DNA from: Bacillota bacterium
GTDB taxonomy: Bacteria; Bacillota; Desulfitobacteriia; Desulfitobacteriales; JAJXUE01
Length of the DNA: 38,611 nt
Direction: 5' to 3'
Assembly (NCBI GenBank): GCA_021783135.1
Contig: JAJXUE010000030.1
Location: forward strand, 1-38,611
A program made the translations under genes and the position numbers. The notes under the pieces are model-generated. The model saw only the letters and a program-made list of their open reading frames with translations. It had not been told where the DNA came from and made no database searches. Of this stretch, positions 3,316-17,804 are shown piece by piece. Numbering within the stretch: the first letter of the stretch is position 1; each line of letters begins with the position of its first letter.

Positions 3316-4434
3316 TTAGCGGGCGCGAAAAGTCTTATTGTGGCAATCATTACAGCTGCTTGCATCGTGACAGGCAAAGCACTTGGCCTGGTTATCCTTA
3401 TTCACCTGTTTGGGATGAATTTGCAGCCAGTCGGTTGGATGTTGATTGTAATGGCATTGAGCGCAGGTGACCGATGAGGCCGGTTTTTCCGGCACCTTGC
3501 CTTTTTCATCATAGTTGTGGCAAGTCAAACATGCATTAATATTGGCCGTGGCTGCAGGTCCGTGTGACACCGTATAAAAGCTTCTATGCGTGGACGGGCG
3601 TTTGCTATGACATTCCACACAGAAATCCGTCTTGCGCGCAAAACTTTGCACGTCGGTCCAACCATTTCCCTGGGGCTTATACTGTAGTTGCAAGGAAGCA
3701 TCATATTGGTGACAGCTATTACAGGCTGCAACATTTCCTAACGCCACATAGCCGTGCGCGGTGGCAAAATTAGCAGTTTTGTGACTGGCAGGTGGTGTTT
3801 TATCCGCGTGGCAAGCATTACAATTACTAGTTGCCATCGAGCCATTATGGCATTTCATACACCCATCCATCGGTATGCGGTTGGGGTCGAATAAATTTTC
3901 CCCTTGCAACAAAGGACCGCTTTGACCGGGGAGATTGACAGTGACGGCTTTGACAACTTGACCGTGCGCTACCGTGCGGTGACATTGGGTACAAGATAGA
4001 CCCATTTGCACGTGCAAATTGTGCGGTACAAGTAAATCCTGCGGTGGAGTGATTACCCTGGCATCACTATGACACTTGAGACATGATGTGTCAGCCACAC
4101 TCACTTGGAGCGTATTAACACGGTTAACCCCCATGAAGTGTTTATAAGCAAAGTTGGCCAATGAAATATTGGTGTGGCAATCAACGCAATTTGCCCTACT
4201 GTGTGAAGTGGTCTTCCAAGCATCATAGCTAGCCTGCATTTCGTGGCAGCTGACACAAAACTCGGGATTATGCGATGCTGCGTTGTACTTGTAGATACCT
4301 GTTAACAGGATGCCGCAAACAACCAAGCACAAAATCAAAAGGCCAACTCTTTTGCTGCGTCGTTTGCGCCTTTGTTTGCCACCTTCACCTCCGTCTGCTG
4401 TGTAGTCCCACTGTCCCTGGTCTGATTGTTTCAC
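3316..4434 (-). CDS. Dodecahaem c-type cytochrome with NrfH/NapC-like membrane-anchored N-terminus
   Basis: A 372-residue cytochrome with a basic cytoplasmic N-terminus, one membrane span (about 29-48) and twelve CxxCH haem-binding motifs outside the membrane. The first motif is CVSCHEM (Cys60-Met66), the CxxCHxM form of NrfH in which Met supplies the axial ligand of haem 1. The first four motifs (about residues 60-150) have the spacing of a NrfH/CymA/NapC tetrahaem quinol dehydrogenase. Eight more motifs follow to the C-terminus (KCFACH and SCNDCH are the last two). The expected role is to take electrons from menaquinol or from the neighbouring cytochrome b and relay them outward; the terminal acceptor is unknown. 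The start is GTG at 4434 with GGGAGGG upstream. It is the last gene of the operon. Confidence 0.93.
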   Translation of the reverse strand: MKQSDQGQWDYTADGGEGGKQRRKRRSKRVGLLILCLVVCGILLTGIYKYNAASHNPEFCVSCHEMQASYDAWKTTSHSRANCVDCHTNISLANFAYKHFMGVNRVNTLQVSVADTSCLKCHSDARVITPPQDLLVPHNLHVQMGLSCTQCHRTVAHGQVVKAVTVNLPGQSGPLLQGENLFDPNRIPMDGCMKCHNGSMATSNCNACHADKTPPASHKTANFATAHGYVALGNVAACNSCHQYDASLQLQYKPQGNGWTDVQSFARKTDFCVECHSKRPSTHRSFYTVSHGPAATANINACLTCHNYDEKGKVPEKPASSVTCAQCHYNQHPTDWLQIHPKQVNKDNQAKCFACHDASSCNDCHNKTFRAR

Positions 4435-4590: not shown

Positions 4591-5364
4591 CTAACTCTTA
4601 TGACTGATTTTTTCGCCTGGTATGCCGTCAAGACTGTCCAAGGCCGTTGTATTTACTTTAAAGGAATCAACTTGTGCCACAGTGCCTCCCTCAAGTCTGG
4701 CAAGCTCAGCCGGATGTTCATGTAACATTAGTTCGCGGGACATCTTGCCGGTGTACCAGAGCTTATTCATCGGGAAAAAGGTTGGGCTAAAATGCACATT
4801 GTAGAAGTGCCAGAAGAAAATTACGACGATTGCCAATACCGCTTCATCACTATGGGCTGCCCGGGACGCATCGATAAACCAGCGTGGGACGTACTTGGTG
4901 GCCACATCCGGGAACCACATCATAAGCCCGGACCCGCCAATCATGAAAATCCCCCAAAACACGGCCCAATAGTCAAACTTTTCCTTATACGTATACCGTT
5001 CCCAATTCGCTTGTTTTTTGCTTAAGCCAAGCAGATATGCCAGATTATCGGCCAAGTCTTTAAAGTCCTTTGGCCCAGGCAAAGTAGCCCACGAACGAGT
5101 TTTTTTACGGGACAACATGTAAATTAGCCAAAACAAATGATACACACAACTAGCTAACATCACCGCTGCACCGGTCAAATGGATTTTTAAATCTGTGTCC
5201 GCTCCGCCGAATAATGCCGCCAGCCTCGACCCCCACCCCGTATATGCATATTTAATGGGCAGGCCTGTAAACGTACAAACCATGAAACTGGTAAACATCA
5301 TGACGTGTTGAATCCGCTGATGGATATTAAAGCGCTCATACTCCTTTTTGGGGCCTTCTGCCAT
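4591..5364 (-). CDS. Cytochrome b, di-haem quinone-interacting membrane subunit
   Basis: A 257-residue membrane protein of the b-type cytochrome family related to formate dehydrogenase gamma and Ni-hydrogenase cytochrome b subunits. Four spans lie at about 20-38, 60-84, 130-150 and 172-190. Candidate haem ligands are His15/His20 (NIHQRIQHVMM), His62, His76 (CVYHLFW), His171 (AAHSDEAV) and His186/His191 (FWHFYNVHFSP). It sits between the two multihaem cytochrome c genes, 15 bp after the heptahaem gene. It probably connects the menaquinone pool to these haem chains. The start ATG follows GGGAGAGAGG. The hydrophilic C-terminal tail (about 195-257) is longer than needed for haem binding and has no recognised motif. 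Confidence 0.88.
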   Translation of the reverse strand: MAEGPKKEYERFNIHQRIQHVMMFTSFMVCTFTGLPIKYAYTGWGSRLAALFGGADTDLKIHLTGAAVMLASCVYHLFWLIYMLSRKKTRSWATLPGPKDFKDLADNLAYLLGLSKKQANWERYTYKEKFDYWAVFWGIFMIGGSGLMMWFPDVATKYVPRWFIDASRAAHSDEAVLAIVVIFFWHFYNVHFSPTFFPMNKLWYTGKMSRELMLHEHPAELARLEGGTVAQVDSFKVNTTALDSLDGIPGEKISHKS

Positions 5365-6270: not shown

Positions 6271-6301
6271 TAACGTTCACCTCTTTTCTTCTCTGGCCAA
6301 C

Positions 6302-6451
6302 TTACCGATATTCGATATTTTCTAAGTCATCCAGAGGAATCAGTACAAGACGTTTACAGTGGCGACATTTGATCACTAAATACCGTTCTTTCTGCTGGCT
6401 AATTATTTTGCCGCATAGGCACTTGATATCTACTACCTTTGCCTCAGCCAA
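6302..6451 (-). CDS. Com-like zinc-finger protein (49 aa), first copy
   Basis: A small frame with a TTG start at 6451, preceded by GGGAGGTG, and a TAA stop at 6302. The 49-residue product has Cys11, Cys13, Cys29 and Cys32 in the arrangement KCLCGK-N13-IKCRHCKRLV. This matches the pattern of the Mu Com-like zinc-finger family (CxCGK...CxxCKR). Phage Mu Com binds mom mRNA and activates its translation; whether chromosomal relatives bind RNA or DNA is unknown. It lies 17 bp after the 69-aa membrane protein and 31 bp before the heptahaem cytochrome, so it is inside the operon. A paralogue is encoded at 6889-7077. Confidence 0.8.
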   Translation of the reverse strand: MAEAKVVDIKCLCGKIISQQKERYLVIKCRHCKRLVLIPLDDLENIEYR

Positions 6452-6468
6452 GACCCTTCACCTCCCTA

Positions 6469-6678
6469 TTATTCGAGTACGGACCACAGATACGGCGGCC
6501 AAACCAGAATAATGCTAACTGCGAAGGTCATCGCAAAAACCACTAAACCCAGACCACACGTCATTACTGCCTTTAGCGCGCTGCTATTTAAATGAATTTT
6601 AAATAACACCACATAGGCTGCTGCACTGAAGCTGAAAATCCCAATAAGCACTAAACCAAGCCCGAATAATAACATCAT
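6469..6678 (-). CDS. Two-span small membrane protein (69 aa), first gene of the cytochrome operon
   Basis: The frame can be extended to 6741, but AGGAGGTGATTTTC lies directly before the ATG at 6678, so the product is 69 residues. It has two hydrophobic segments (about 2-26 and 38-62) around a short polar turn (KIHLNSSALK) and ends WPPYLWSVLE. No family is recognised. As the first gene of the electron-transfer operon it could be a small subunit or assembly factor for the cytochrome complex; this is from context only. Confidence 0.72.
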   Translation of the reverse strand: MMLLFGLGLVLIGIFSFSAAAYVVLFKIHLNSSALKAVMTCGLGLVVFAMTFAVSIILVWPPYLWSVLE

Positions 6679-6728
6679 GAAAATCACCTCCTCACCGAAA
6701 AAATTGGCTTTGGTCAGAAAAACAATAA

Positions 6729-6759
6729 CAGGGGCTGGCAAAACAAATGCCAGCCCCTG
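6729..6759 (-). terminator. Strong hairpin upstream of the cytochrome operon (terminator or attenuator)
   Basis: A perfect 12-bp GC-rich stem (CAGGGGCTGGCA with its complement) and a 7-nt loop. On the minus strand it is followed by TTATTGTTTTTCTG, a moderately T-rich run. It lies 50 bp upstream of the first cytochrome-operon gene, so it may be read through conditionally. Its 5' arm can also pair with the GCCAG at the end of the adjacent 29-bp repeat, an alternative fold that would remove the terminator. Confidence 0.65.
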
Positions 6760-6768
6760 AAATAGTTG

Positions 6769-6797
6769 CTGGCCTCTGGACTTAAAGTCTCCGGACT
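6769..6797 (-). repeat. 29-bp repeat, copy A (operon-proximal)
   Basis: This copy differs at two positions from the copy at 6856-6884, 87 bp away. On the minus strand each copy contains AGTCCGGAG, six bases, then AGTCCAGAG, a direct repeat with a 15-bp period. It also holds the near-palindrome GACTTWAAGTC. A TATA-like TAATAT lies at 6803-6808 just upstream of this copy. Confidence 0.8.
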
Positions 6798-6834
6798 AAA
6801 CAATATTAAGTTAACTAGGAGAAATAAACAGAAA

Positions 6835-6862
6835 AGACCAGTCCCCTGTGGGGAACTGGTCT
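6835..6862 (-). terminator. Terminator after the second Com-like gene
   Basis: On the minus strand AGACCAGTTCCCC pairs with GGGGACTGGTCT (12 bp, one bulged base, 3-nt loop), followed by TTTCTGTTTATTT. It overlaps the end of repeat copy B and lies 26 bp past the stop of the gene at 6889-7077. Confidence 0.75.
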
Positions 6863-6884
6863 CTGGACTTTAAGTCTCCGGACT
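6856..6884 (-). repeat. 29-bp repeat, copy B (Com-proximal)
   Basis: Second copy of the element at 6769-6797 with two substitutions (C/T and A/T). It starts 4 bp beyond the stop codon of the second Com-like gene, and its last bases form one arm of the hairpin at 6835-6862. Confidence 0.8.
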
Positions 6885-6888
6885 CAGG

Positions 6889-7077
6889 CTAGATATTTAC
6901 TAACTTTGCCTCGGTAATTATATATTTTCCCTGCAGGCTACCCGTTACGTGAACGGTTTTGCCTTTATTTATGGTTATGTTGACAATACGTTTGCAATGC
7001 CGGCACTTGATGATAAATACCTCAGCATCGTGCTGACCGAGAAGCTTACCGCATTGACAGCGGACATCATTAAGCAT
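6889..7077 (-). CDS. Com-like zinc-finger protein (62 aa), second copy
   Basis: A 62-residue product from the ATG at 7077, with Cys7, Cys9, Cys24 and Cys27 as RCQCGKLLG-N13-KCRHCKRIV. This is the same layout as the 49-aa protein at 6302-6451 and matches the Mu Com-like zinc-finger family. A C-terminal extension of about 30 residues (TVHVTGSLQGKYIITEA) looks like beta strands. An in-frame GTG at 7137 would add 20 residues, but the shorter start puts the cysteines at the same distance from the N-terminus as in the paralogue; GGTGGG precedes it. A terminator and the 29-bp repeat follow. The target nucleic acid is unknown. Confidence 0.75.
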   Translation of the reverse strand: MLNDVRCQCGKLLGQHDAEVFIIKCRHCKRIVNITINKGKTVHVTGSLQGKYIITEAKLVNI

Positions 7078-7160
7078 TTTCCCACCGTCCCTTTCACGCC
7101 TTGTGTTAATTATCACAAAGCCCAGTTTTTCGACCACTGTGTGTTTCCTTTTCTAGTTAA

Positions 7161-7190
7161 ATTATATGAGATTTCCGGCCCAATTCCCAA
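7161..7190 (-). promoter_or_regulatory. Putative promoter for the second Com-like gene
   Basis: On the minus strand TTGGGA (7185-7190), an 18-bp spacer and a perfect TATAAT (7161-7166) precede the Com-like gene by about 84 bp. The -35 is imperfect. The region also overlaps the 29-codon frame at 7162-7251. Confidence 0.45.
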
Positions 7191-7251
7191 TCAATTGGTT
7201 GGTGCTCTCGGACATTTCGTTGGTAATCACGGTCATGTTTTGTTGCTTCAT
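7162..7251 (-). CDS. Possible 29-aa peptide coupled to the AraC-type regulator
   Basis: The ATG at 7251 overlaps the regulator stop codon as ATGA, and the frame stops at TAA (7162-7164). The product begins MKQQNMTVITNEMSEST and ends NWAGNLI. It has no transmembrane segment or known motif. The four-base overlap is typical of translational coupling, but the ribosome binding site is weak (GATAGG) and a TATAAT lies inside the 3' end. It could be real, or simply a chance frame. Confidence 0.25.
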   Translation of the reverse strand: MKQQNMTVITNEMSESTNQLIGNWAGNLI

Positions 7252-10199
7252 CCTATCTGTTGGCTATTTCGGACTTGAGACCTGGGAAGTTTACGGAATT
7301 CACTGGGAGAAACGCCCATCAAGGCCTTAAAGGTTTTACAAAACTGCGATTTATCACTAAGGCCAACCAAGCTACCTACTTGGCTGATGCTCAGCGTTGG
7401 ATTTTGCAACAGTTCTTTGGCCTTCTCGATCCGAAAGGCCGTAACATATTCTTTAATCCCTAACCCAAAGTAGTGTGAAAACAAACGGCGTAGTTGTCGT
7501 TCCGACATATTGGCGATGTGGCATAGAGTTGCCACATTAACATCGCCGGCGAACTGATTGTGCACATGCTCTAATACATCCGCCAGTTCAGGCGGTAGGC
7601 TGGAGTCGGATGCAAGCACAGCACCCTGTACGGGGTGACCAATTACTGTTTCCGGCAGTCCCAACTGAGATCGGAATCTGCGCTCATGTTGGGGGTTGCA
7701 AATTGCGGTCCAAAGCGTGCAGAGCATAAATCCTTCCGCATACATTGCGTGGGCCAGGCACAACTCACTCATCTGTGCTACCAATTCGCGCACAGCTGCC
7801 ATGTCGCCCTGCCATTGTTGGCATAAAGCCATAACTCTAAGCAAATGCAGCCTGTTGCGCGGTGTTAGATGAGTCTGAGCCAAGTCCTCTAAGTATTGCC
7901 ACGATCGAGTAAGCGCCTGTTCGGTCCTATCACTTGCCGCTATTAGTATCTCCAGGGTTAGAATTTCTTGGGAGATTGTGTTATCCTCCCTGTTTCTCCC
8001 CACTTCCTGCAGATCAACCAAAATATCTTTTAATTTAGTTTGATGATTCGCTAGCAAAGCTAAGTAACTTTCCAACCGGTAAACATTTAGCCGCAAGAGT
8101 TTGGCTTGAGTATATACTTCCAAAGACTTAACCCGCTCCAGGATAGTCTGAGCCATACTATAGTCGCCCCTAAGCATTGCCAGTTGCGCCATTCTAGTTT
8201 GAATTTGCCCTAAGAGCAGCGGATCCTGCATTTTCTTCGCTATGTCTAGGCTCATGTTAAACAAGCTGTCCGCCTCGGCCAGTTCACCGTGTTCCAGTGC
8301 CAACTGGCCTCTGATAAAATAGCTTAAGAGCTTAGCCAAAGCGTTTGAATTAGGATAAGCTGCCAGTTTAGTGGCGTGCTCCAAAGCTTTATTAATTTCA
8401 CCGCTCTGGATGTAGAGAAAAGTGTATATCGCACTTACCTCTTGCGCAACTCCGGCGTCATTGTCATTCTTCGCCCGCTGAGCCAGTAACTCGGCCAAGC
8501 TCTCAGCTTCATCAATTTTATCCATGGCGATGTAAGCAAAAATAATGTTGTTCAGAATCGCTTGCTTATGAACATCGCGGCTCGACTCAAGCGCCATACT
8601 ATAATGCTCCAGTGTTTCCTTATAGTTGCCCATGCGAAAGGACAAATCTCCCAACTTATTTTGGACGGAAGCATAGCGTGCCGTACCTTTTTCTACGCCA
8701 ATATTGAGCAATTCCCCCAAATATCGCCACGCTTCTTGGTAATAGCCGAGAAAACAAGCACTCTCCGCCAACCCTTCTAAAACGGCATAACGATAGAGCT
8801 GGGCAGCAAGTTGATCCAACAATGGGAAAATGTCGCGCGCGGAGACAAAATACCGCCAAGCCGTCTGAAAAGCATAAAGTGATATTGCACGTTGTCCCGC
8901 GACGATTGCATACTTGACCGCCTTGCTTCTGTCGGCGCCCCACTGAAAATGATAAGCAAGCTCATCAGGGTTCTGCCTGGGATCTACAGTCTGTTCCAGC
9001 AATACACCGATTTGTTCATGTAATATTACCTTACGCTGGTAGGAGATGCTTTCATACAAGACTTCCTGCAGCCGAGAACTGACAAAGGTAAAATAACCTT
9101 GGGCGCTTTCGTAATGCTCTTCGATTAATTTTAAACCAATAGCTTCCTCTAATAAGGGGAGCAACTCCAAGAGCGAAATATCCAGCACCTGCGCTAAATT
9201 TTGCGCTGTAAAGCGACGACCGAGGACCGCTGCAGTACTGAGGATTGCCCTTACTTCCGCCCGAATTCCCTGTAAGCGCAATAAAAACATCTCTTTAATC
9301 TCCTCAGGCAACGCAATTTCACGCGGTCGAGAATACTGCCAGCCTCGTCCAGCCTGTTTTAGGTTACCTGTTGTAATCAATTTGCCCACTAAGTGCCTGA
9401 TGACTAAAGGATTACCTTCGCTTTTTTGGAAGATCGCATCCGCCAAACCTGCGGGCAGGACACTTTGCTCCAACAAGCTTTGGATAAATTCCTCTGTTTC
9501 TTCCCGATTAAAGGGTAAGAGATTAATCCGCACGATTGCATCTTCACTGTTTAAGGTGCGAATGAAATTGCGAAAACTTGTAAATTTGGCATTGGCCAAA
9601 TCGACATCATCCAAATCATATGTACCACAGATCAGCATGTGAAAAGCACTCTGATGCTCAATAAAATACTGAATCACTTCCAAAGTGGTCGGGTCAGCAT
9701 AGGGAATATCTTCAATGATTAAGACCACAGCTACTTGTTGCAGTAAATCACTCACAATGCTGCAGGCATTTTCCAAAAATAACTTTTCCGGTAAATTTTC
9801 CGTATAAGAATAACTTCTGGCCATGAGGTTACAGATGCTACCATATTTAGGCACTAAAAGGGCCAGCTCATTAATTACACGCGGCGAATAACTGGCTAAT
9901 ACTTCCTTAACCTTATGTTGACCCAACTGCTCCAGCAGGATGCGCAGGAGTTCCGCCAAGGGGTGATACGGATAGGAACTGCCGAGCGGGCCACTCTTGC
10001 ATACCAAGTAAAATCCGCCGCGCGTCTCAACGTTGCCTCTTAATTGCTGCAAAAGACAAGATTTTCCGATCCCAGTGTCTCCTCCGACCAACAACATATG
10101 TGTACCTCGTTCCAGGCTATCCGCGAATAGCTTGCCTACTTGCTTGCTCTCCTTGGTGCGGCCCACAAACATCTGTAAATGTTCGTCTATTTTAAACAT
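7248..10199 (-). CDS. Large STAND-type ATPase/TPR regulator with AraC-type DNA-binding domain
   Basis: A 983-residue regulator. The N-terminal ATPase has the start signature MFVGRTKE, a Walker A GGDTGIGKS (39-47) and a Walker B-like VVLIIEDIPYAD. A MalT-like winged-helix region about 290-390 (REIALPEEIKEMFLLRL, TAAVLGRRFTAQNLAQ) is followed by a long helical TPR-like array about 400-850. The C-terminal 110 residues are an AraC/XylS double helix-turn-helix (VATLCHIANMSERQLRRLF, ISQVGSLVGLSDKSQFCKTF, GVSPSEFRKL). MalT-type proteins normally end in a LuxR domain, so this output is unusual. The ATG is preceded by AGGAGGG. It lies directly upstream of the Com-like/cytochrome region and is the natural candidate regulator; its inducer is unknown. 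Confidence 0.9.
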   Translation of the reverse strand: MFKIDEHLQMFVGRTKESKQVGKLFADSLERGTHMLLVGGDTGIGKSCLLQQLRGNVETRGGFYLVCKSGPLGSSYPYHPLAELLRILLEQLGQHKVKEVLASYSPRVINELALLVPKYGSICNLMARSYSYTENLPEKLFLENACSIVSDLLQQVAVVLIIEDIPYADPTTLEVIQYFIEHQSAFHMLICGTYDLDDVDLANAKFTSFRNFIRTLNSEDAIVRINLLPFNREETEEFIQSLLEQSVLPAGLADAIFQKSEGNPLVIRHLVGKLITTGNLKQAGRGWQYSRPREIALPEEIKEMFLLRLQGIRAEVRAILSTAAVLGRRFTAQNLAQVLDISLLELLPLLEEAIGLKLIEEHYESAQGYFTFVSSRLQEVLYESISYQRKVILHEQIGVLLEQTVDPRQNPDELAYHFQWGADRSKAVKYAIVAGQRAISLYAFQTAWRYFVSARDIFPLLDQLAAQLYRYAVLEGLAESACFLGYYQEAWRYLGELLNIGVEKGTARYASVQNKLGDLSFRMGNYKETLEHYSMALESSRDVHKQAILNNIIFAYIAMDKIDEAESLAELLAQRAKNDNDAGVAQEVSAIYTFLYIQSGEINKALEHATKLAAYPNSNALAKLLSYFIRGQLALEHGELAEADSLFNMSLDIAKKMQDPLLLGQIQTRMAQLAMLRGDYSMAQTILERVKSLEVYTQAKLLRLNVYRLESYLALLANHQTKLKDILVDLQEVGRNREDNTISQEILTLEILIAASDRTEQALTRSWQYLEDLAQTHLTPRNRLHLLRVMALCQQWQGDMAAVRELVAQMSELCLAHAMYAEGFMLCTLWTAICNPQHERRFRSQLGLPETVIGHPVQGAVLASDSSLPPELADVLEHVHNQFAGDVNVATLCHIANMSERQLRRLFSHYFGLGIKEYVTAFRIEKAKELLQNPTLSISQVGSLVGLSDKSQFCKTFKALMGVSPSEFRKLPRSQVRNSQQIG

Positions 10200-10245
10200 G
10201 CGAGCCCTCCTGGCTAGTGTTAAATTTCACAAATATTGTTTAGAT

Positions 10246-10251
10246 ATTATA
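10246..10251 (-). promoter_or_regulatory. Possible -10 element of the AraC-type regulator gene
   Basis: A perfect TATAAT on the minus strand about 50 bp upstream of the regulator start; no convincing -35 is visible. The rest of the 293-bp gap between this gene and nuoN (10200-10492) holds only the nuo terminator and AT-rich sequence without a supported gene. Confidence 0.35.
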
Positions 10252-10445
10252 TGTAAAACTGACTACCGCAAACACTTAGTTTTTGAACTTCTCTTTTATT
10301 CCGTTCAAGTCCTGCTCCAGTTTCCAGAGCTTTCCGACTAAATTTCTACCGTTTCACAATTTATCAGCCTTTGCTGCTTCAAATTCGCATCAAGCTACTT
10401 ATTAATATAAATATTTCGCGTGTCGCACAATTTTGCCGATCATGC

Positions 10446-10474
10446 AAAAAGCCCCCAGGTCTAAACCTGGAGGC
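10446..10474 (-). terminator. Terminator of the nuo operon
   Basis: On the minus strand GCCTCCAGGT pairs with ACCTGGGGGC (10 bp, one U-G pair, 4-nt loop), followed by TTTTTGC. It lies 18 bp past the nuoN stop. Confidence 0.9.
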
Positions 10475-10492
10475 TCAAGCAACTAAAATTGT

Positions 10493-11926
10493 TTACCGTA
10501 TCAAGCTCTTAGCCGCGCTAATCGCCATCTGGGCCAATGGAGTAGGATAGATGCCAATAAATAATGTCACTATCATTGTTACAAACAGTGTGAACTTACT
10601 TGCTCCACCTAAACCAATTTTAGGCAATCCTTCACCCGGCTCCATATACATGGTTTTCACTACGGACAGATAGTAGTAAACAGACACCATGCTCATCACA
10701 AAGCCGATATACGCCAGGCTTACCCAGCCTTGATTAATTACAGCGGAGAATAAGTAGAACTTACCCACAAAGCCGGCCAGCGGCGGAATACCTGCCAGGG
10801 AAAGCAAGGATATCAGCATGACTGCCGCGGCGAACGGCGAACGTCGGGCCAACCCGGCAAAGTCTTTAATCTGGTCGCTCCCTTGGGCATTGGCGATTAA
10901 CGTTGCCACCGTAAACGCACCCATGTTGGCAAAGACATAGATCATTGCGTAAAACAGTACGGCTTTGACCCCTGCTTGATCCCCGGCCAACAGTCCGATT
11001 GCTAAGTAACCGGCTTGCGCAATGCTGGAATAGGCCATCATACGCTTGAAGCTCTTTTGCGGAATCGCCATTAAGTTACCGGCAATCATGGTCACTGCGA
11101 TGAGCACTGCCAGCACCACTTCCGGGCTGCCACCATAAACTTGCTGTTGGAAGCCAATTAGAAATACCCGCGTGAGCGCAGCAAAACCGGCAGCTTTTGA
11201 AGCTACAGCCAAATAGGCAGTAACCGGCGTGGGTGCACCTTCATAGATATCTGGGGCCCACATATGGAAAGGAATCAGGGAAATCTTGAACGCAAAGCCT
11301 ACTAGGACCATCACCAGGGCCAAAATTATGGCCGGGCTAATGGAACTGCCAAGGCTGGAGGCGACTTCCGCGATAACAGTGGAACCCGTGAGACCATACA
11401 CGAAACTGATGCCATACAGCAACACAGCCGAGGACACAGCGCCAAGAATTAGATACTTTAGCCCAGCCTCACTGGATTTGCCATCCTCTGTCAGATACGC
11501 AACTAAGACGTAAAAAGAGATAGTCATCGTTTCTAGGCCAATGTACAGTGTAATCAAATCCCCGGACCCTGCCATAATCATCATGCCTAAGGCGGCAAAG
11601 AGGATTAACGCATAAAATTCACCACGGTGCGCCGGCAACTTTTGCACATATTCCGTGGACGACAGTACAACCAAAAGCGCTGCTGTCAAAAATAGTAGTT
11701 TGAAAAAGCTGGCATAATTATCGGCATAGTACATTCCATTCAGGAATGTCCCATGCACATTGGCAGCAAACTGCCCACCCGTGACTCCCATCGTTAACAG
11801 GAGGCCCAAAATAGTCAGAGGTACCATGCCTTTATGCGGTCCTTTGGGAATCATTAGTCCAATCGCCAAAATGACTACGGCCACGATTGCCAGAGTAATT
11901 TCCGGCGCAAGCAAAGCGTAATTCAT
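10493..11926 (-). CDS. nuoN: NADH-quinone oxidoreductase subunit N
   Basis: A 477-residue antiporter-like proton-pumping subunit of complex I with about 14 membrane spans. The conserved glutamate of the fifth-helix region is present (LYIGLETMTISFYVLVAY), as are the lysine-bearing helices (VLVGFAFKISLIPFHMWAPD and the SFKRMMAYSSIAQAGY segment). The start ATG overlaps the nuoM stop as TAATG. It is the last gene of the operon and is followed by a terminator. Length and motifs are normal for the family. Confidence 0.96.
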   Translation of the reverse strand: MNYALLAPEITLAIVAVVILAIGLMIPKGPHKGMVPLTILGLLLTMGVTGGQFAANVHGTFLNGMYYADNYASFFKLLFLTAALLVVLSSTEYVQKLPAHRGEFYALILFAALGMMIMAGSGDLITLYIGLETMTISFYVLVAYLTEDGKSSEAGLKYLILGAVSSAVLLYGISFVYGLTGSTVIAEVASSLGSSISPAIILALVMVLVGFAFKISLIPFHMWAPDIYEGAPTPVTAYLAVASKAAGFAALTRVFLIGFQQQVYGGSPEVVLAVLIAVTMIAGNLMAIPQKSFKRMMAYSSIAQAGYLAIGLLAGDQAGVKAVLFYAMIYVFANMGAFTVATLIANAQGSDQIKDFAGLARRSPFAAAVMLISLLSLAGIPPLAGFVGKFYLFSAVINQGWVSLAYIGFVMSMVSVYYYLSVVKTMYMEPGEGLPKIGLGGASKFTLFVTMIVTLFIGIYPTPLAQMAISAAKSLIR

Positions 11927-13440
11927 TAGAATATCCCTCCATTCGACTGGCCGAGAGTCTTAATAACTTCGGCAATACCGGAGGTATGAACGCCGGAATT
12001 AATGATACTCATTAGAATGTTAGGGAGAACCCCGCCAGCTATGATTACAAATCCCAAGACCACCAAGGGCACCATTTCCGGTCCACGAATGTCCTTAAGG
12101 TGATCCCATTCAGGCCGCCGCGGGCCAAACAGCACATTGGCCAAAACCCGCAACGTGTATACGGCTGTGAAAATTACCCCGGCGATGCCCAAAATGGCCA
12201 GAACCGGATACACCCTAACCGAACCGACAAAGATGGTAAACTCAGCCACAAAGTTTACTGTACCGGGCAAACCTAACGAAGCCATGCCTGCAATCATAAA
12301 GGCAATAGCCAGTCGCGGCATTTGGGCCGCCAGTCCGCCCAAATCGGGAATAAACCTGGTGTGAGATTTTTCGTACACAAAGCCAATAGAGGAAAAGAAC
12401 AAGGCAGCCATTACCCCATGGGCAAACATCTGGGCTACCGCACCATCAATGCCCACCACATTCAAGGCAAACATGGCGATCAACACATATCCCATATGAC
12501 TTACAGAGGAGTAACCAATGACATACTTCAAGTCCTTCTGCGCGAGGGCTATAAAGGCCGCATAAAGCACATTGCCAATTGCCAATACTGCTATTACCGG
12601 AGCCCAGAACCTAGCGCCGAGCGGCAAGATAAAAATGCCTACTCGAATTAAGCCATAACCGCCGATTTTCTTCAACACCCCAGCGTGGATCATACTAACC
12701 GCAGTCGGAGCGCCGGCGTATCCATCAGGTGACCAAGAGTGAAAAGGAAACATGGAAATTAGAGAGCCAAAGCCCAATAGCATCAACCCAAACACAATGA
12801 TTTGGAAATTTTGGGGCAGCAATGCCGCTGAACGTTGGGCCAATACCGGAATCATGAAGGTATCAGCGCCTGCTTTAAGGTAGAGCGCCACCATTCCCAC
12901 TAATAGGAATGCAGACCCTAAAAGCAGATATATGGTCAACTTCATACCCGCATATTCTTTAGTGACTCGTTTTGAACTACCCCAAATCAACACCATAATG
13001 TAAATCGGAATAACCACAACTTCGTAGAATAAGAAGAAGATAAATAGATCCTTAGCGAGGAATGTACCCATTACTCCGGTTATCAGGACCATTAAGAGAA
13101 CGAAAAACTCTTTGACTCTGGTGTTGATGTTCCAAGAAGCAAATACAGCTGTAAAGCCAATTAAGTTGGTCAGGAGCAGCATGGGTAAGCTAATCCCGTC
13201 AACACCCAAGGCATACTGCACTCCCAAGTCCTTGGTCCACTGCACAGTTTCATTGAATTGATAACCGCCGACATTTTTGTCATAGGCAAAAAATACGAAC
13301 ACGCTCATGGCCAGGGCTGCTAAAGTGCCCAGGGCCGCCACAATTTTTATGGTCTTTGGTTCATCCTCGGGAAGGAAGATTATGACCAGCGCGGCGATAA
13401 TAGGAGCTAATAACGTAGCTGTTAATACCGGAAAGGTCAT
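11926..13440 (-). CDS. nuoM: NADH-quinone oxidoreductase subunit M
   Basis: A 504-residue antiporter-like complex I subunit. Key features are the pump glutamate in FIFFLFYEVVVIPIYIMVL, the conserved FPFHSWSPDGYAGAPTAVSMIHAGVLKKIGGYG block split around the central lysine helix, and KDLKYVIGYSSVSHMG. The start lies one base after the nuoL stop and the end overlaps nuoN by one base, so translation is tightly coupled. Family length is normal, with no disruption. Confidence 0.96.
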   Translation of the reverse strand: MTFPVLTATLLAPIIAALVIIFLPEDEPKTIKIVAALGTLAALAMSVFVFFAYDKNVGGYQFNETVQWTKDLGVQYALGVDGISLPMLLLTNLIGFTAVFASWNINTRVKEFFVLLMVLITGVMGTFLAKDLFIFFLFYEVVVIPIYIMVLIWGSSKRVTKEYAGMKLTIYLLLGSAFLLVGMVALYLKAGADTFMIPVLAQRSAALLPQNFQIIVFGLMLLGFGSLISMFPFHSWSPDGYAGAPTAVSMIHAGVLKKIGGYGLIRVGIFILPLGARFWAPVIAVLAIGNVLYAAFIALAQKDLKYVIGYSSVSHMGYVLIAMFALNVVGIDGAVAQMFAHGVMAALFFSSIGFVYEKSHTRFIPDLGGLAAQMPRLAIAFMIAGMASLGLPGTVNFVAEFTIFVGSVRVYPVLAILGIAGVIFTAVYTLRVLANVLFGPRRPEWDHLKDIRGPEMVPLVVLGFVIIAGGVLPNILMSIINSGVHTSGIAEVIKTLGQSNGGIF

Positions 13441-13441
13441 C

Positions 13442-15412
13442 TTATCTTACACCTCCCAACTGTGTTAGGGCAGCAAGTTGGCCGTCACCTATCGTAATGA
13501 TTAAGAACAGCGCTACCACTGCAAAGAAGAAGACAATCGCGTACACCTGTAGTTGACCGGTCTGCGCTTTGCGGAACCAATTGCCCAAGAAACGGGCTAG
13601 GAAGGCAAGTCCATTGACAATGCCGTCAACCACATAGATGTCAAACCAATACAGAACCTTGCCAATCCCATCCACAATGTTTTTGATGATCCAGGCGTAA
13701 AATTCATCCACATAGTATTTGTTTTTAAGCACAGTATGCACCCGTGGGAAGGCAGCGGCCAAAGGATCGCTCTCCTTACCGTTATAGATACCGTAAGCAG
13801 ACACCATGCCGGCAAGCCCTACCACGACAGAAATTCCCGCCAGCGTCCAGTTCATCGGATCAGGCTCATACACAGAACCCCACGGCCTAACGTAGTAGGC
13901 AAATCCGTGCGCAGGGATGGCCACCCAACCGCCGACAACGGAAAGTGTACCCAAAATAATTAAGGGCAGGGTCATCATCCAAGGAGATTCGTGCGGATGA
14001 TTTTCCTTCTTTTCCGGACCCATAAATGCGATAACGAAAAGCCTGGTCATGTAAAACGCTGTTAAGAAAGCGGTAAATAAGCCGACCGCATAGATAACAG
14101 GATGACCATTTTTGAGGGCTGTGCCAAGAATTTCATCCTTACTCCAAAAACCGGCAAACGGGAAGATGCCGGAAATCGCTAGCACGGCAATTGCAAAAGT
14201 GGTACCGGTAATACGCATTTTTTTCCACAGACCGCCCATATCCCAAATATCTTGCTTTTCGTGCAAGGCATGGATTACGGAACCGGCCCCTAAGAACAAC
14301 AAGGCCTTAAAGAAGGCGTGCGTCATCAAATGGAACATGCCTGCCGTCATTGTGCCAACACCCATCGCCATCACCATATAGCCCAACTGGCTCAAGGTTG
14401 AATAGGCCAAGATGCGCTTGATATCATTTTGGGCAATCGCGATAGTTGCGGCAAATAGAGCCGTAAAGGTTCCAAGGCTGCCGACAAATTCCAGTACCGC
14501 CGGTGATGCGTGTTGAAACAAAAAGTAAGTCCGAGCCAGCAAATACACACCGGCAACAACCATGGTTGCGGCGTGAATCAAGGCGCTGACCGGGGTAGGG
14601 CCTTCCATTGCGTCCGGTAACCACACATGCAGCGGGAACTGACCGGACTTGCCAATCGGACCGCTAAAGAGCAGAAATGCTGTTAGAGTTAGGTAAGACA
14701 TCCCACCGAAAACAATGGCGTTTTGAAATCCCGGACCCATCAGCTTCGCCAAGTCGACAAAATTGAGTGTGCCGAACTTATTAAACAGGAATAAAATTGC
14801 GATTAATAAGCCGAAGTCACCGACCCTGGTAGTAATGAAGGCCTTCTTCGCCGCTTCGCGCGCCGAAACCTTGAAATACCAAAAACCGATGAGTAGGTAG
14901 GAACACAAACCAACCAATTCCCAAAACAGGAACAGCTCTAACAGATTACTCGCCAGCACCAATCCCAACATCGACATAGCGAACAGGGATTGATAGGCAA
15001 AATACCGTGCATAACCTTTGTCACCGTGCATATAGCCTACTGAATAAATTTGCACCAAAGACGCAACTAAGGTTACCACAAACAACATGACTCCGGTAAT
15101 GGGGTCAATCAAGGTCCCAAAATCAAGACCAAAGGTATTGGGCGTTAAGCCAATATGGACCCCGCTAAAGGTCAACCAATGAACGGTTGCCTGAAAAGGG
15201 TGATCTACCAGCGAAGCACCAACACCACTAAAGAATATGCCGAAATCTATCCATACTGCCAAGACAAACGAGGTAAGGATACACACGATGGAAATGGTAG
15301 AGGATAGCTGTGGCCATTTTTTTGTAATAAAGCCGATTATCAGGAAGGACAGCAGTGGCATGGCCGGAATCAACCAGGCCCACTGAAAACTTGCGTGCAT
15401 CTCGATTAACAC
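13442..15412 (-). CDS. nuoL: NADH-quinone oxidoreductase subunit L
   Basis: A 656-residue subunit, the distal proton channel of complex I. It carries the conserved glutamate in ELFLFWELVGLCSYLLIGFWY, the HVWLPDAMEGPTPVSALIHAA block and the lysine-containing DIKRILAYSTLSQLGYM. After the antiporter core it has the C-terminal extension (about 520-656) with KYYVDEFYAWIIKNIVDGIG and final membrane helix that form the lateral HL arm. The start ATG lies 19 bp after nuoK. Confidence 0.96.
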   Translation of the reverse strand: MLIEMHASFQWAWLIPAMPLLSFLIIGFITKKWPQLSSTISIVCILTSFVLAVWIDFGIFFSGVGASLVDHPFQATVHWLTFSGVHIGLTPNTFGLDFGTLIDPITGVMLFVVTLVASLVQIYSVGYMHGDKGYARYFAYQSLFAMSMLGLVLASNLLELFLFWELVGLCSYLLIGFWYFKVSAREAAKKAFITTRVGDFGLLIAILFLFNKFGTLNFVDLAKLMGPGFQNAIVFGGMSYLTLTAFLLFSGPIGKSGQFPLHVWLPDAMEGPTPVSALIHAATMVVAGVYLLARTYFLFQHASPAVLEFVGSLGTFTALFAATIAIAQNDIKRILAYSTLSQLGYMVMAMGVGTMTAGMFHLMTHAFFKALLFLGAGSVIHALHEKQDIWDMGGLWKKMRITGTTFAIAVLAISGIFPFAGFWSKDEILGTALKNGHPVIYAVGLFTAFLTAFYMTRLFVIAFMGPEKKENHPHESPWMMTLPLIILGTLSVVGGWVAIPAHGFAYYVRPWGSVYEPDPMNWTLAGISVVVGLAGMVSAYGIYNGKESDPLAAAFPRVHTVLKNKYYVDEFYAWIIKNIVDGIGKVLYWFDIYVVDGIVNGLAFLARFLGNWFRKAQTGQLQVYAIVFFFAVVALFLIITIGDGQLAALTQLGGVR

Positions 15413-15431
15413 CTACCTTCTCCTAAACTCT

Positions 15432-15785
15432 CTACCATTTTAACCAGTCTAATTCGTCAATATCAGTTGATAAACGGTTGCGATAAATGGTTATGACCAG
15501 CGCCAAGCCAACTGCAACCTCGGCCGCCGCCACAACTATCACGAATAAAGCCGAAACATGACCAGTTAAAATCGCGTGCTTAACACCGTTAAAATCATAG
15601 GTCTGGTTGTACAAAAAGTGATTAAACGCAACCAGATTGATATTCACAGCATTGAGCATCAATTCGAGAGACATGAGGACAGCAATAGCATTTTTTTTGG
15701 CCAATACACCGTATAAGCCAAAACAAAACAGCATAGCCCCTACTAGAAGGTAGTGAGGTAACCCAACCGATAAGCTCAAATTCAT
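15432..15785 (-). CDS. nuoK: NADH-quinone oxidoreductase subunit K
   Basis: A 117-residue three-span subunit. The two functionally important glutamates are visible: Glu41 ([11 protein letters not shown]) and Glu89 ([13 protein letters not shown]). It is about 15 residues longer than the usual 100-residue NuoK, the extra length lying in the loop between spans 2 and 3 ([17 protein letters not shown]). It overlaps nuoJ by four bases (ATGA). Confidence 0.95.
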
Positions 15786-16297
15786 TTGCTATCATCCACT
15801 CCCTTCGCCAAGATAATAGCGCCAACCATGGCAACTAACAACAATACAGCAGCAACTTCAAACGGCACTACATATTTGGTGAGCAACAGCCACGAAACAT
15901 CTGAAACAGTACTGCCGCCGGATATGCCCGTACCGGTTGTGAGCCATGCCGAGTTCGTGAATATTACCATGCCAAGAACTACAAAGGTCAAGAGGGCCGC
16001 AATTGCACCCCCGATTGCATTCCGCGTATCCCCGTTACTGTTTTCCGGTCCACCGCGCAAGGTAAGCATAACACCAAAGACAACCATAATGGATATAGCG
16101 CCTGCATAGACCAGTAGTTGCACCATAGCCAAAAAGTCAGCATCAAGCATAGCATATAAAGCCGCCACACCGATAAAGGTTAAGATCAAGAAAAGCGCAC
16201 TGTGAATAATATTGCGCGAACTAATAACTAAGTAAGCGGAAAACACCGTAACCAAAGCAAAGACTAAGAAGACCAGACCGCCGCCGATATTACCCAT
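15782..16297 (-). CDS. nuoJ: NADH-quinone oxidoreductase subunit J
   Basis: A 171-residue membrane subunit with five predicted spans. The family signature [20 protein letters not shown] is intact; it forms the pi-bulge helix TM3 that couples quinone chemistry to the pumps. The start overlaps nuoI by 8 bp and the end overlaps nuoK by 4 bp. The C-terminus is short and hydrophilic (AKGVDDSK), as in other bacterial NuoJ. Confidence 0.95.
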
Positions 16298-16748
16298 TGT
16301 CTTTCGCCTCCTCTTGCTTTGTCTCTGGCTTTACCTCTTCCTTAATCTCACCACTTGCAACCTTATCCCGGTAACGCTGCATCATGTCCCATTGCATGTC
16401 TTCGCGGAAATAGACCGCATTTTCAAATTCAGTAGTGGTATACAACGCCTTGGTTGGGCATGCTTCCGTACACAAGCCGCAAAAGAGGCAACGAGTTAAA
16501 TCCATATGATAACTGGTGAGAAACTTCTTGTTACTTTCGTTCTTGTCGGTTGTAAGCGTAATAACCTTATTCGGGCAGGCACTAGAGCACATACCGCAAG
16601 ATATACACTTGGGGGTATTTAAGGCCAGGGAACTCCGAGTCCGGGGTGGTAAGGTGGGCATGTCTTCCGGATAGAACTCTGTAATTTTTTTGTCAAACAT
16701 ATGACGAAATGTGATACCCAATCCCTTGGCTAAACCTTTTCCGAACAC
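16290..16748 (-). CDS. nuoI: NADH-quinone oxidoreductase subunit I, two [4Fe-4S] clusters
   Basis: A 152-residue ferredoxin-like subunit with two complete cluster motifs, CISCGMCSSACP and CLFCGLCTEACP, binding N6a and N6b. It carries electrons toward NuoB. The C-terminus is a charged tail ([16 protein letters not shown]) beyond the conserved core. The start is GTG at 16748 with AGGAGGG upstream, 3 bp after nuoH. As NuoE, NuoF and NuoG are absent, this subunit could accept electrons directly from a ferredoxin or another docking protein. Confidence 0.96.
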   Translation of the reverse strand: MFGKGLAKGLGITFRHMFDKKITEFYPEDMPTLPPRTRSSLALNTPKCISCGMCSSACPNKVITLTTDKNESNKKFLTSYHMDLTRCLFCGLCTEACPTKALYTTTEFENAVYFREDMQWDMMQRYRDKVASGEIKEEVKPETKQEEAKDNG

Positions 16749-16751
16749 TGC

Positions 16752-17804
16752 TTACCCTCCTATCGCCGGATAGATGAGCTGGTAAATGTAGATGCCAACG
16801 CCGGTTAATAGGATATTAGCTACCGACAAGGGCAAGAGTACCTTCCAGCCAAAATGCATCAACTGGTCAACCCTCAGGCGGGGGAATGTCCAGCGAAACC
16901 ACAGAAATAAAAACACCATGAACAAAACCTTGATCGCAAACCAGATCCAACCCGGTAGAAATGGACCTTGCCAGCCGCCTAAGAAGACGGTTGCTGCAAC
17001 CGCGGACACGATAAACAGATTGGCATACTCGCCAAGGAAAAACAACGCCCAGCGCATTCCCGTATACTCAGTGAACGCACCGGCAGTCAACTCAGATTCA
17101 CCTTCCACTAAATCGAAAGGAGCCCGGTTAGTTTCAGCAGTCGCTGCTATGGTATAAACCACAAAGCCCAATGGTTGAAGTAAGATGAACCAGACATGAC
17201 TCTGCGCATTTACAATGGCAGACATTTTAAAAGTCTGTGTAATCATAACGACTCCAAGCAAGGAAAATACCAGCGGAATTTCATAGCTGATCATTTGTGC
17301 TACCGCACGCATACCGCCTAAAAGGGCGAACTTGTTGTTAGAGCCCCAGCCCGCCATAAAAAAGGGTATCGTGGTTAAGGCAGACACAGCCAGTAAGTAA
17401 AAAATACCTACATTAAGGTCAACCGGAACCATACCTTTACCGTACGGTATCACAGCCATGACCATTACGCTTAAACCAATCACAAACATTGGCGCCAACC
17501 CGAAAACCCATTTATCAGCCGCAGCTGGGAATATATCCTCTTTGCCCAACAGTTTCATGGCGTCCGCGACTGTTTGAAACCAGCCCCGCGGACCCAGACG
17601 ATTCGGGCCTGTCCTTAACTGCATCCAGCCGGCGACTTTGCGCTCCAACAGGATCAGGGACAGAGCCGCCAAGGCTATAAGCGCCCAGATAATAAGTGAA
17701 TTAATCACGGTCATGACCACATCGGCAGTAACCGTAGTCCCGCCGAACAATCCCCTGATCAAATGAGCTATACTAACAAATAATCCACTTCCATATTGTG
17801 GCAT
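16752..17804 (-). CDS. nuoH: NADH-quinone oxidoreductase subunit H
   Basis: A 350-residue membrane subunit with eight or nine spans that forms the quinone-access channel. Conserved blocks include [57 protein letters not shown] and [20 protein letters not shown]. The acidic residues of the E-channel are present. The ATG follows GGGGAG, and the nuoD stop lies 30 bp upstream. Confidence 0.97.

What the first reader, a model, noticed from the sequence alone, without database searches (positions are those of the whole stretch)
6679..6888. Duplicated repeat-plus-hairpin control region before the cytochrome operon
Two 29-bp near-identical repeats, 87 bp apart, each abut a strong hairpin. Each repeat contains AGTCCRGAG twice with a 15-bp period. 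In the operon-proximal unit, GCCAG at the end of the repeat can pair with CTGGC of the next hairpin, which would prevent terminator formation. This suggests either a protein-binding site for the AraC-type regulator or an attenuation system, possibly a new RNA element.
Basis: partly seen in the sequence, partly recalled or inferred. Interest (0 to 1): 0.6.

Follow-up and report, generated by a model that had tools for sequence, protein, structure and literature searches.

The report
Zinc-ribbon-linked RNA terminator switches
Two copies of a previously undescribed, widely conserved RNA signal (tandem tiny hairpins fused to a transcription terminator) sit inside an operon for multi-heme electron-transfer proteins, and they are probably read by small zinc-ribbon proteins, related to phage Mu's RNA-binding protein Com, that the same operon encodes.

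Summary
In detail: two 29-bp repeats, 93% identical, at 6769-6797 and 6856-6884, each joined to a strong terminator hairpin on the minus (gene) strand. It is not a local oddity. The unit AGUCC-N-GAG-RC, 2-3 times in tandem, merging into a GRCCAG...CUGGYC terminator, recurs in dozens of operons from several Bacillota families, almost always on the transcript strand (62 of 64 tandems), mostly beside 6-7-heme cytochromes. The regulator most strongly tied to it is not the AraC protein but small zinc ribbons (CxC...CRHC); the window's operon encodes two. In 398 genomes sampled from the phylum, 27 of 29 with the RNA also encode the zinc ribbon; 7 of the other 369 do. These proteins resemble phage Com by profile. 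Published Com-binding test RNAs contain CCAGAGA and CCGGAG, as do the commonest repeats here. Loop sequence changes with the residue after the zinc ribbon's CxC. Protein binding and the sign of regulation are inferred. No Rfam match and no description in the held papers were found.

The parts
7161..7190 (-). promoter-like site TTGGGA-18-TATAAT of the operon
   Evidence: consensus scan (such sites are no rarer in shuffles); same spacing visible in both relatives
7101..7118 (-). palindrome TTGTGATAATTAACACAA, Rex-box-like, between promoter and first gene
   Evidence: identical in both relatives; 0.02 matches expected by chance; Rex assignment is from memory of the consensus
6889..7077 (-). Com-like zinc-ribbon gene A, 62 aa, CxCGK...KCRHCKR
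6873..6884 (-). unit 1, first repeat AGUC-CGGA-GACU
6858..6869 (-). unit 1, second repeat AGUC-CAGA-GACC; its GACC is also the 5' arm of the terminator
6833..6864 (-). unit 1 intrinsic terminator (class I unit)
   Evidence: whole unit matched by the covariance model at 6830-6884 (it is one of the model's own training copies)
6786..6797 (-). unit 2, first repeat AGUC-CGGA-GACU
6771..6782 (-). unit 2, second repeat AGUC-CAGA-GGCC
   Evidence: unit 2 was not in the model's alignment and is matched at 6742-6797, E 2.6e-13
6749..6774 (-). unit 2 antiterminator: GGCCAGC (6774-6768) pairing with GCUGGC (6754-6749)
   Evidence: stepwise folding
6718..6759 (-). unit 2 terminator hairpin 6759-6729 and T-rich tail (class II unit)
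6469..6678 (-). small membrane protein, 69 aa, next gene
   Evidence: conserved beside the element in 19 of 54 related loci
6302..6451 (-). Com-like zinc-ribbon gene B, 49 aa
5380..6270 (-). multi-heme cytochrome c
   Evidence: Pfam; relatives in 34 of 54 loci
4591..5364 (-). cytochrome b561-type subunit
   Evidence: Pfam; relatives in 32 of 54 loci
3316..4434 (-). NapC-type multi-heme cytochrome
   Evidence: Pfam

Best explanation
Each unit is a cis-acting RNA attenuator made of a tandem recognition module (2-3 copies of AGUC-CNGA-GRC, each a potential 3-4-bp hairpin) whose last copy is built into an intrinsic terminator (class I, unit 1) or into an antiterminator that competes with a terminator (class II, unit 2). 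Small Com-like zinc-ribbon proteins, encoded in the same operons, bind the tandem CCNGAG loops of the nascent RNA, much as phage Mu-type Com binds CC(N)2-3GAG hairpin loops. Because the last repeat's GRCC can be in the protein-binding hairpin or in the terminator/antiterminator stem, but not both, binding changes read-through: in class I it should block the terminator (antitermination), in class II it should block the antiterminator (termination). Shown here: the conserved RNA element, its strand, the compensatory changes in its terminator stem, the overlap of the alternative pairings, the co-occurrence with the zinc ribbon, and the loop/protein correlation. Inferred: direct binding, the mini-hairpins as structures, the sign of regulation, and the signal sensed.
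For: Element and zinc ribbon co-occur in 398 sampled genomes: 27 of 29 element genomes have the protein, against 7 of 369 others (Fisher p 4e-33); the 2 exceptions are 61-63% complete. In the window's genome the five loose matches lie beside the five zinc-ribbon genes. 62 of 64 tandems are on the transcript strand. Terminator stem: 5 of 7 pairs with changes on both sides. Loops are CNGA beside CxCGK proteins (29 of 31) and mostly other loops beside CxC[K/N/H]K proteins (11 of 15 for all non-G; p 6e-6); both types coexist with their own loops in the window's organism and in L046, L048, L052. Profile comparison with phage Com: probability 97%, E 3e-11. Com's published target is CC(N)2-3GAG in a hairpin loop with a C-G closing pair, bound better when present twice, and its test RNAs contain CCAGAGA and CCGGAG. 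Stepwise folding gives antiterminator, then terminator, in unit 2.
Against: No binding or transcription data. The mini-hairpin stems hardly vary, so covariation neither supports nor refutes them. Spacing differs from Com's motif (one base between CC and GAG, not two or three). The zinc ribbons miss the Pfam Com cut-off and have CxC, not CxxC, in the first knuckle. Several CxCKK proteins have no recognisable element nearby. Copies were selected for a hairpin, which inflates percent paired. Relatedness of genomes and loci inflates the p values. The class II arrangement was found in 21 of 81 copies against 9.5 in shuffles, so some listed cases are chance.
Confidence: 0.65

Rival explanations
1. 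Constitutive terminator cassette: an efficient terminator with a conserved upstream box, copied along with the zinc-ribbon gene, setting fixed stoichiometry within the operon; the zinc ribbon does something else.
For: Every unit ends in a good terminator; element and gene lie side by side and could be inherited together.
Against: An ordinary terminator does not need a conserved tandem CCNGAG module, varied 1-3 times; elements lie both before and after the genes, and far from them in other operons of the same genomes; loops track the protein type within single genomes; class II copies carry a competing hairpin.
Confidence: 0.15
2. The same RNA attenuator, but read by another trans-acting factor or a small ligand (a mini-riboswitch of tandem hairpins); the zinc ribbon is a co-regulated accessory protein.
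For: Tandem mini-hairpins with conserved loops resemble small ligand-binding RNAs in size; some genomes have elements in operons without a nearby zinc-ribbon gene.
Against: Genome-level co-occurrence with the zinc ribbon, loop/protein correlation, variable repeat number, and loop likeness to Com targets favour the zinc ribbon. No Rfam riboswitch match.
Confidence: 0.13
3. Post-transcriptional control: the protein-RNA modules act mainly on mRNA processing, stability or translation of the next gene, as Com does on mom, and the hairpins are processing or 3'-end protection signals.
For: The only studied relative, Com, acts on translation (PMC6483171). Unit 2 ends 40 nt before the next start codon.
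Against: The repeats are fused to U-tailed terminators and not to ribosome-binding sites; unit 1 lies well away from any start codon.
Confidence: 0.06
4. DNA operator of the neighbouring AraC-type regulator.
For: The AraC/ATPase gene (10199-7248) is next door in all three family members; direct repeats are typical of AraC-family sites.
Against: No relative of that gene in the other 52 loci; strand bias; position inside the operon; fusion to terminator stems that covary.
Confidence: 0.01

Closest known systems
Phage Mu-type Com protein and its mom mRNA target (PF10122 Zn_ribbon_Com; PMC6483171)
   Same: Small four-cysteine zinc ribbon with basic residues after the last knuckle; target is a short hairpin with a C-G closing pair and a CC...GAG loop, better when present twice, next to an inhibitory structure that binding opens.
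   Different: CxC instead of CxxC in the first knuckle, below the Pfam cut-off; one base instead of two or three between CC and GAG; chromosomal, in respiratory operons; fused to transcription terminators, whereas Com acts on translation of a DNA-modification gene.
Protein-dependent transcription attenuators (TRAP/trp, PyrR/pyr, LicT/SacY, ANTAR/EutV-NasR)
   Same: A protein-binding RNA module overlaps a terminator or antiterminator stem, so that binding and the stem exclude each other. The ANTAR targets also use two hairpins, the second overlapping the terminator.
   Different: Different protein fold, different RNA motif (tandem AGUC-CNGA-GRC). The resemblance of AGUCCNGAG to the PyrR loop lacks the GGYU side.
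Guanidine-II riboswitch (mini-ykkC)
   Same: Two tiny hairpins with conserved tetraloops before an expression platform (from memory).
   Different: Different loops, no Rfam match here, variable number of repeats, co-occurs with a candidate RNA-binding protein.

Membership tests
Com family (PF10122) | Score above the Pfam gathering cut-off | tested here: not met
   No match over the cut-off in the genome; 5 of 24 zinc ribbons match weakly, best E 0.0063
Com family (PF10122) | Remote homology to phage Com by profile comparison | tested here: met
   hhalign probability 97%, E 3e-11 over 43 columns; the shared pattern is largely the zinc-ribbon motif
Com family (PF10122) | Four-cysteine CxxC...CxxC zinc module | tested here: not met
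   Four cysteines invariant but as CxC...CRHC
Com family (PF10122) | Binds CC(N)2-3GAG hairpin loops in RNA | not testable with these tools
   Candidate targets are CC(N)1GAG in potential hairpins
Protein-dependent attenuator | Mutually exclusive antiterminator and terminator | tested here: met
   Unit 2: stepwise folding and overlap; other copies
Protein-dependent attenuator | Termination changes on binding of a regulator | not testable with these tools
   Needs transcription assays
Any Rfam 15 family (including PyrR and guanidine-II) | Score at or above the family threshold | tested here: not met
   Window region at E up to 5: only four weak, implausible matches; seven element-rich loci at gathering score: one tRNA only
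ANTAR target RNA | Two hairpins with six-base loops, A at 1 and G at 4 (from memory) | tested here: not met
   Loops are four-base CNGA, or CCNGAG if six bases are counted
AraC-family operator | Association with the AraC gene | tested here: not met
   Gene found in 2 of 54 related loci, both of the same family

The most novel reading that the evidence does not exclude
A chromosomal regulon in anaerobic Bacillota in which Com-like zinc ribbons act as transcription antiterminators and terminators by reading tandem mini-hairpins. Paralogous proteins are matched to their own loops (CNGA with CxCGK, other NNNA loops with CxCKK), so several separate protein-RNA pairs work in one cell and control multi-heme cytochromes and, in trans, operons such as ATP synthase and ftsZ-spoIIGA.
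Probability: 0.4. Interest if true: 0.86.

Novelty: new variant of a known kind. Interest (0 to 1): 0.72.

Why it matters
It would give Gram-positive metal- and electrode-respiring bacteria (Thermincola, Carboxydocella and relatives) a dedicated RNA-level control of their multi-heme cytochromes, about which the papers found here say nothing. It would move Com, known from one phage gene, into a large bacterial family of RNA regulators with a testable loop-by-residue recognition code, and it would explain a class of unannotated 50-60-residue proteins.

Tried and rejected
AraC operator: rejected, gene absent elsewhere. PyrR site: suggested by ARUCCNGNGA, but the GGYU side is missing and there is no Rfam match. 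Inner hairpin GACUU-AAGUC: looked conserved in the first copies, but the spacer varies freely (GACAAACAGUC, GACGUUAAGUC), so it is not what is kept. Mobile repeat: rejected by the strand bias and by only two close copies in the genome. L005, a two-mismatch hit inside a helicase gene, is chance. The AlphaFold model of the zinc ribbon was poor (pLDDT 62) and no fold search was made with it. A sequence search of solved structures found nothing meaningful. A search of phage records with the window's zinc ribbon found nothing significant. Literature searches found no description of the element or of these zinc ribbons; two genome papers on related organisms do not mention them. Absence from the held library does not prove novelty. 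In one search I first typed the Mu Com sequence from memory; it was then fetched from the phage record, and only the fetched copy was used in the comparison with Com.

Full report
WHAT IS THERE. On the minus strand the operon reads: promoter-like site (7190-7161), palindrome TTGTGATAATTAACACAA (7118-7101), zinc-ribbon gene A (7077-6889), unit 1, unit 2, small membrane protein (6678-6469), zinc-ribbon gene B (6451-6302), multi-heme cytochrome c (6270-5380), cytochrome b561-type subunit (5364-4591), NapC-type multi-heme cytochrome (4434-3316). Both units contain AGTCCGGAGACTTNAAGTCCAGAGRCCAG, 93% identical over 29 nt. Unit 1 runs straight into a 14-pair terminator. Unit 2 runs into an antiterminator (GGCCAGC with GCTGGC) that overlaps a 12-pair terminator.

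CONSERVATION IN THE FAMILY. In the own genome the full pattern occurs only at these two places. Both other genomes of the family hold two units at the same place; none of the other 80 genomes of the order and class do. A looser pattern found exactly five places in the own genome, and all five lie in the two loci that hold its five zinc-ribbon genes, within a few hundred bases of one; contig C48 carries a paralogous cytochrome operon with its own elements.

WIDER SEARCH. A scan of species genomes with an alignment of these zinc ribbons returned 33 loci from Thermincola, Carboxydocella, Candidatus Frackibacter, Candidatus Acetocimmeria, Symbiobacterium-like and other Bacillota. Most hold the same element, often several times. 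Tandem copies lie on the gene strand in 62 cases against 2 to 4, depending on how the few odd ones are counted: the raw table is 62 plus and 4 minus, two of the minus ones being the window's own, whose genes are on the minus strand; taken strictly that is 64 of 66, and I quote the more cautious 62 of 64. In 54 tandem copies the loops are mostly CGGA or CAGA, the last loop base is A in 53 of 54 for each repeat, the spacer is 3-5 nt, and most have a T-rich tail.

STRUCTURE EVIDENCE. On 42 aligned copies the terminator stem that starts with the last repeat's GRCCAG has changes on both sides at 5 of 7 pairs, for example G-C in 30 and A-U in 12 sequences at the second pair. Copies were selected for a hairpin, so the percentage paired is inflated and the shuffle control is partly circular; the alternation of pair types is still what a maintained stem would show. 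The mini-hairpin stems GUC/GRC are almost invariant and give no covariation evidence either way; the only change is U-A to U-G. In copies with unusual loops (UAUA, AAAA, GUUA, AGGA, GAUA, AGAA) the letters AGUC...GRCU stay while the loop changes, which fits a hairpin but is not proof.

PROTEIN LINK. A covariance model of the element and the zinc-ribbon alignment were run on the same 398 genomes drawn from the phylum. At E 1e-8 or better the element is in 29 genomes; the zinc ribbon (E 1e-15 or better) is in 27 of these and in 7 of the other 369 (Fisher p 4e-33; relatedness inflates this, and the model was built from copies near zinc-ribbon genes). The two exceptions are 61% and 63% complete. 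Loops nearest to CxCGK proteins are CNGA in 29 of 31 cases; nearest to proteins with another residue there, 11 of 15 are other loops (p 6e-6, a comparison chosen after seeing the data). Both types coexist with their own loops in the window's organism and in L046, L048 and L052. The residue that splits the types follows the second cysteine. The Com paper's proposed RNA-contact set (Arg8, Asn13, Lys14, Arg31) would include that position if its numbering runs three ahead of Mu Com; I infer this and did not check it.

COM. [quoted passage not shown]). Its designed test RNAs contain CCAGAGA (RNA I, IA) and CCGGAG (RNA II), which are also in the commonest repeats here. Profile comparison of the zinc ribbons with five phage Coms gives probability 97%. 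The Pfam cut-off is not met and the first knuckle is CxC, so I call them Com-like, not Com.

MECHANISM. The last repeat can either be a recognition hairpin or supply GRCC to the terminator (class I) or antiterminator (class II). Binding should therefore raise read-through at class I sites and lower it at class II sites. Class I copies often follow a zinc-ribbon gene; clear class II copies tend to lie before the membrane-protein or cytochrome genes. One operon could thus balance zinc ribbon and cytochrome supply. The class II scan gave 21 of 81 copies against 9.5 in shuffles, so only the clear cases (GCCAG followed by a T-run, about a dozen, and unit 2 of the window family) should be trusted. 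The signal sensed (zinc, redox state, heme) is unknown.

BEYOND CYTOCHROMES. The model also finds elements between ftsZ and the spoIIGA region in two families, before a likely ATP synthase operon, before an AAA-ATPase gene, in a NifB/ParA-like cluster and near a transporter (gene names by eye, not by profile search). This suggests action in trans but is the least tested part.

CONFIDENCE BY STEP. Real conserved RNA element: about 0.93. Attenuator: about 0.8. Zinc ribbon as its direct binder: about 0.7. Opposite signs for the two classes: about 0.45.

Noticed in passing
7101-7118 and 10215-10232 (-): A Rex-box-like palindrome, TTGTGATAATTAACACAA, lies between the operon's promoter and first gene, identical in both relatives; a weaker copy lies just before the start of the AraC/ATPase gene. 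Redox control by Rex is plausible.
   Followed up: partly
7248-10199 (-): Unusual 983-aa regulator: AAA ATPase plus TPR repeats plus C-terminal AraC-type helix-turn-helix, kept next to the operon in the whole family.
   Followed up: no
L026 (contig C48 of the same genome), about 6300-17440: An Hdr-like and methylenetetrahydrofolate-reductase-like gene cluster is followed directly by a paralogous zinc-ribbon/cytochrome operon with its own, diverged elements (gene names by eye).
   Followed up: partly
L153 5068-5115 (-) and L163 5942-5990 (+): In two different families the element lies between ftsZ and a small membrane protein/spoIIGA region; the small protein is related to the window's membrane protein.
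   Followed up: partly
L147 1410-1461 (-): A class II-like element lies before a likely ATP synthase operon in a Thermincola genome.
   Followed up: no
L136, L137, L139, L140, L145: CxCKK zinc ribbons without a recognisable element nearby: either they act elsewhere or their target has diverged.
   Followed up: partly
L012-L015 around 1500-1620: More distant zinc-ribbon genes (about 43% identity) in other genera of the order, next to genes that look like excisionases, apparently in mobile elements.
   Followed up: no
L077 186-523 and L076 301-687: Phage Com genes also overlap DNA methyltransferase genes rather than mom, so Com-type control is not limited to mom.
   Followed up: no
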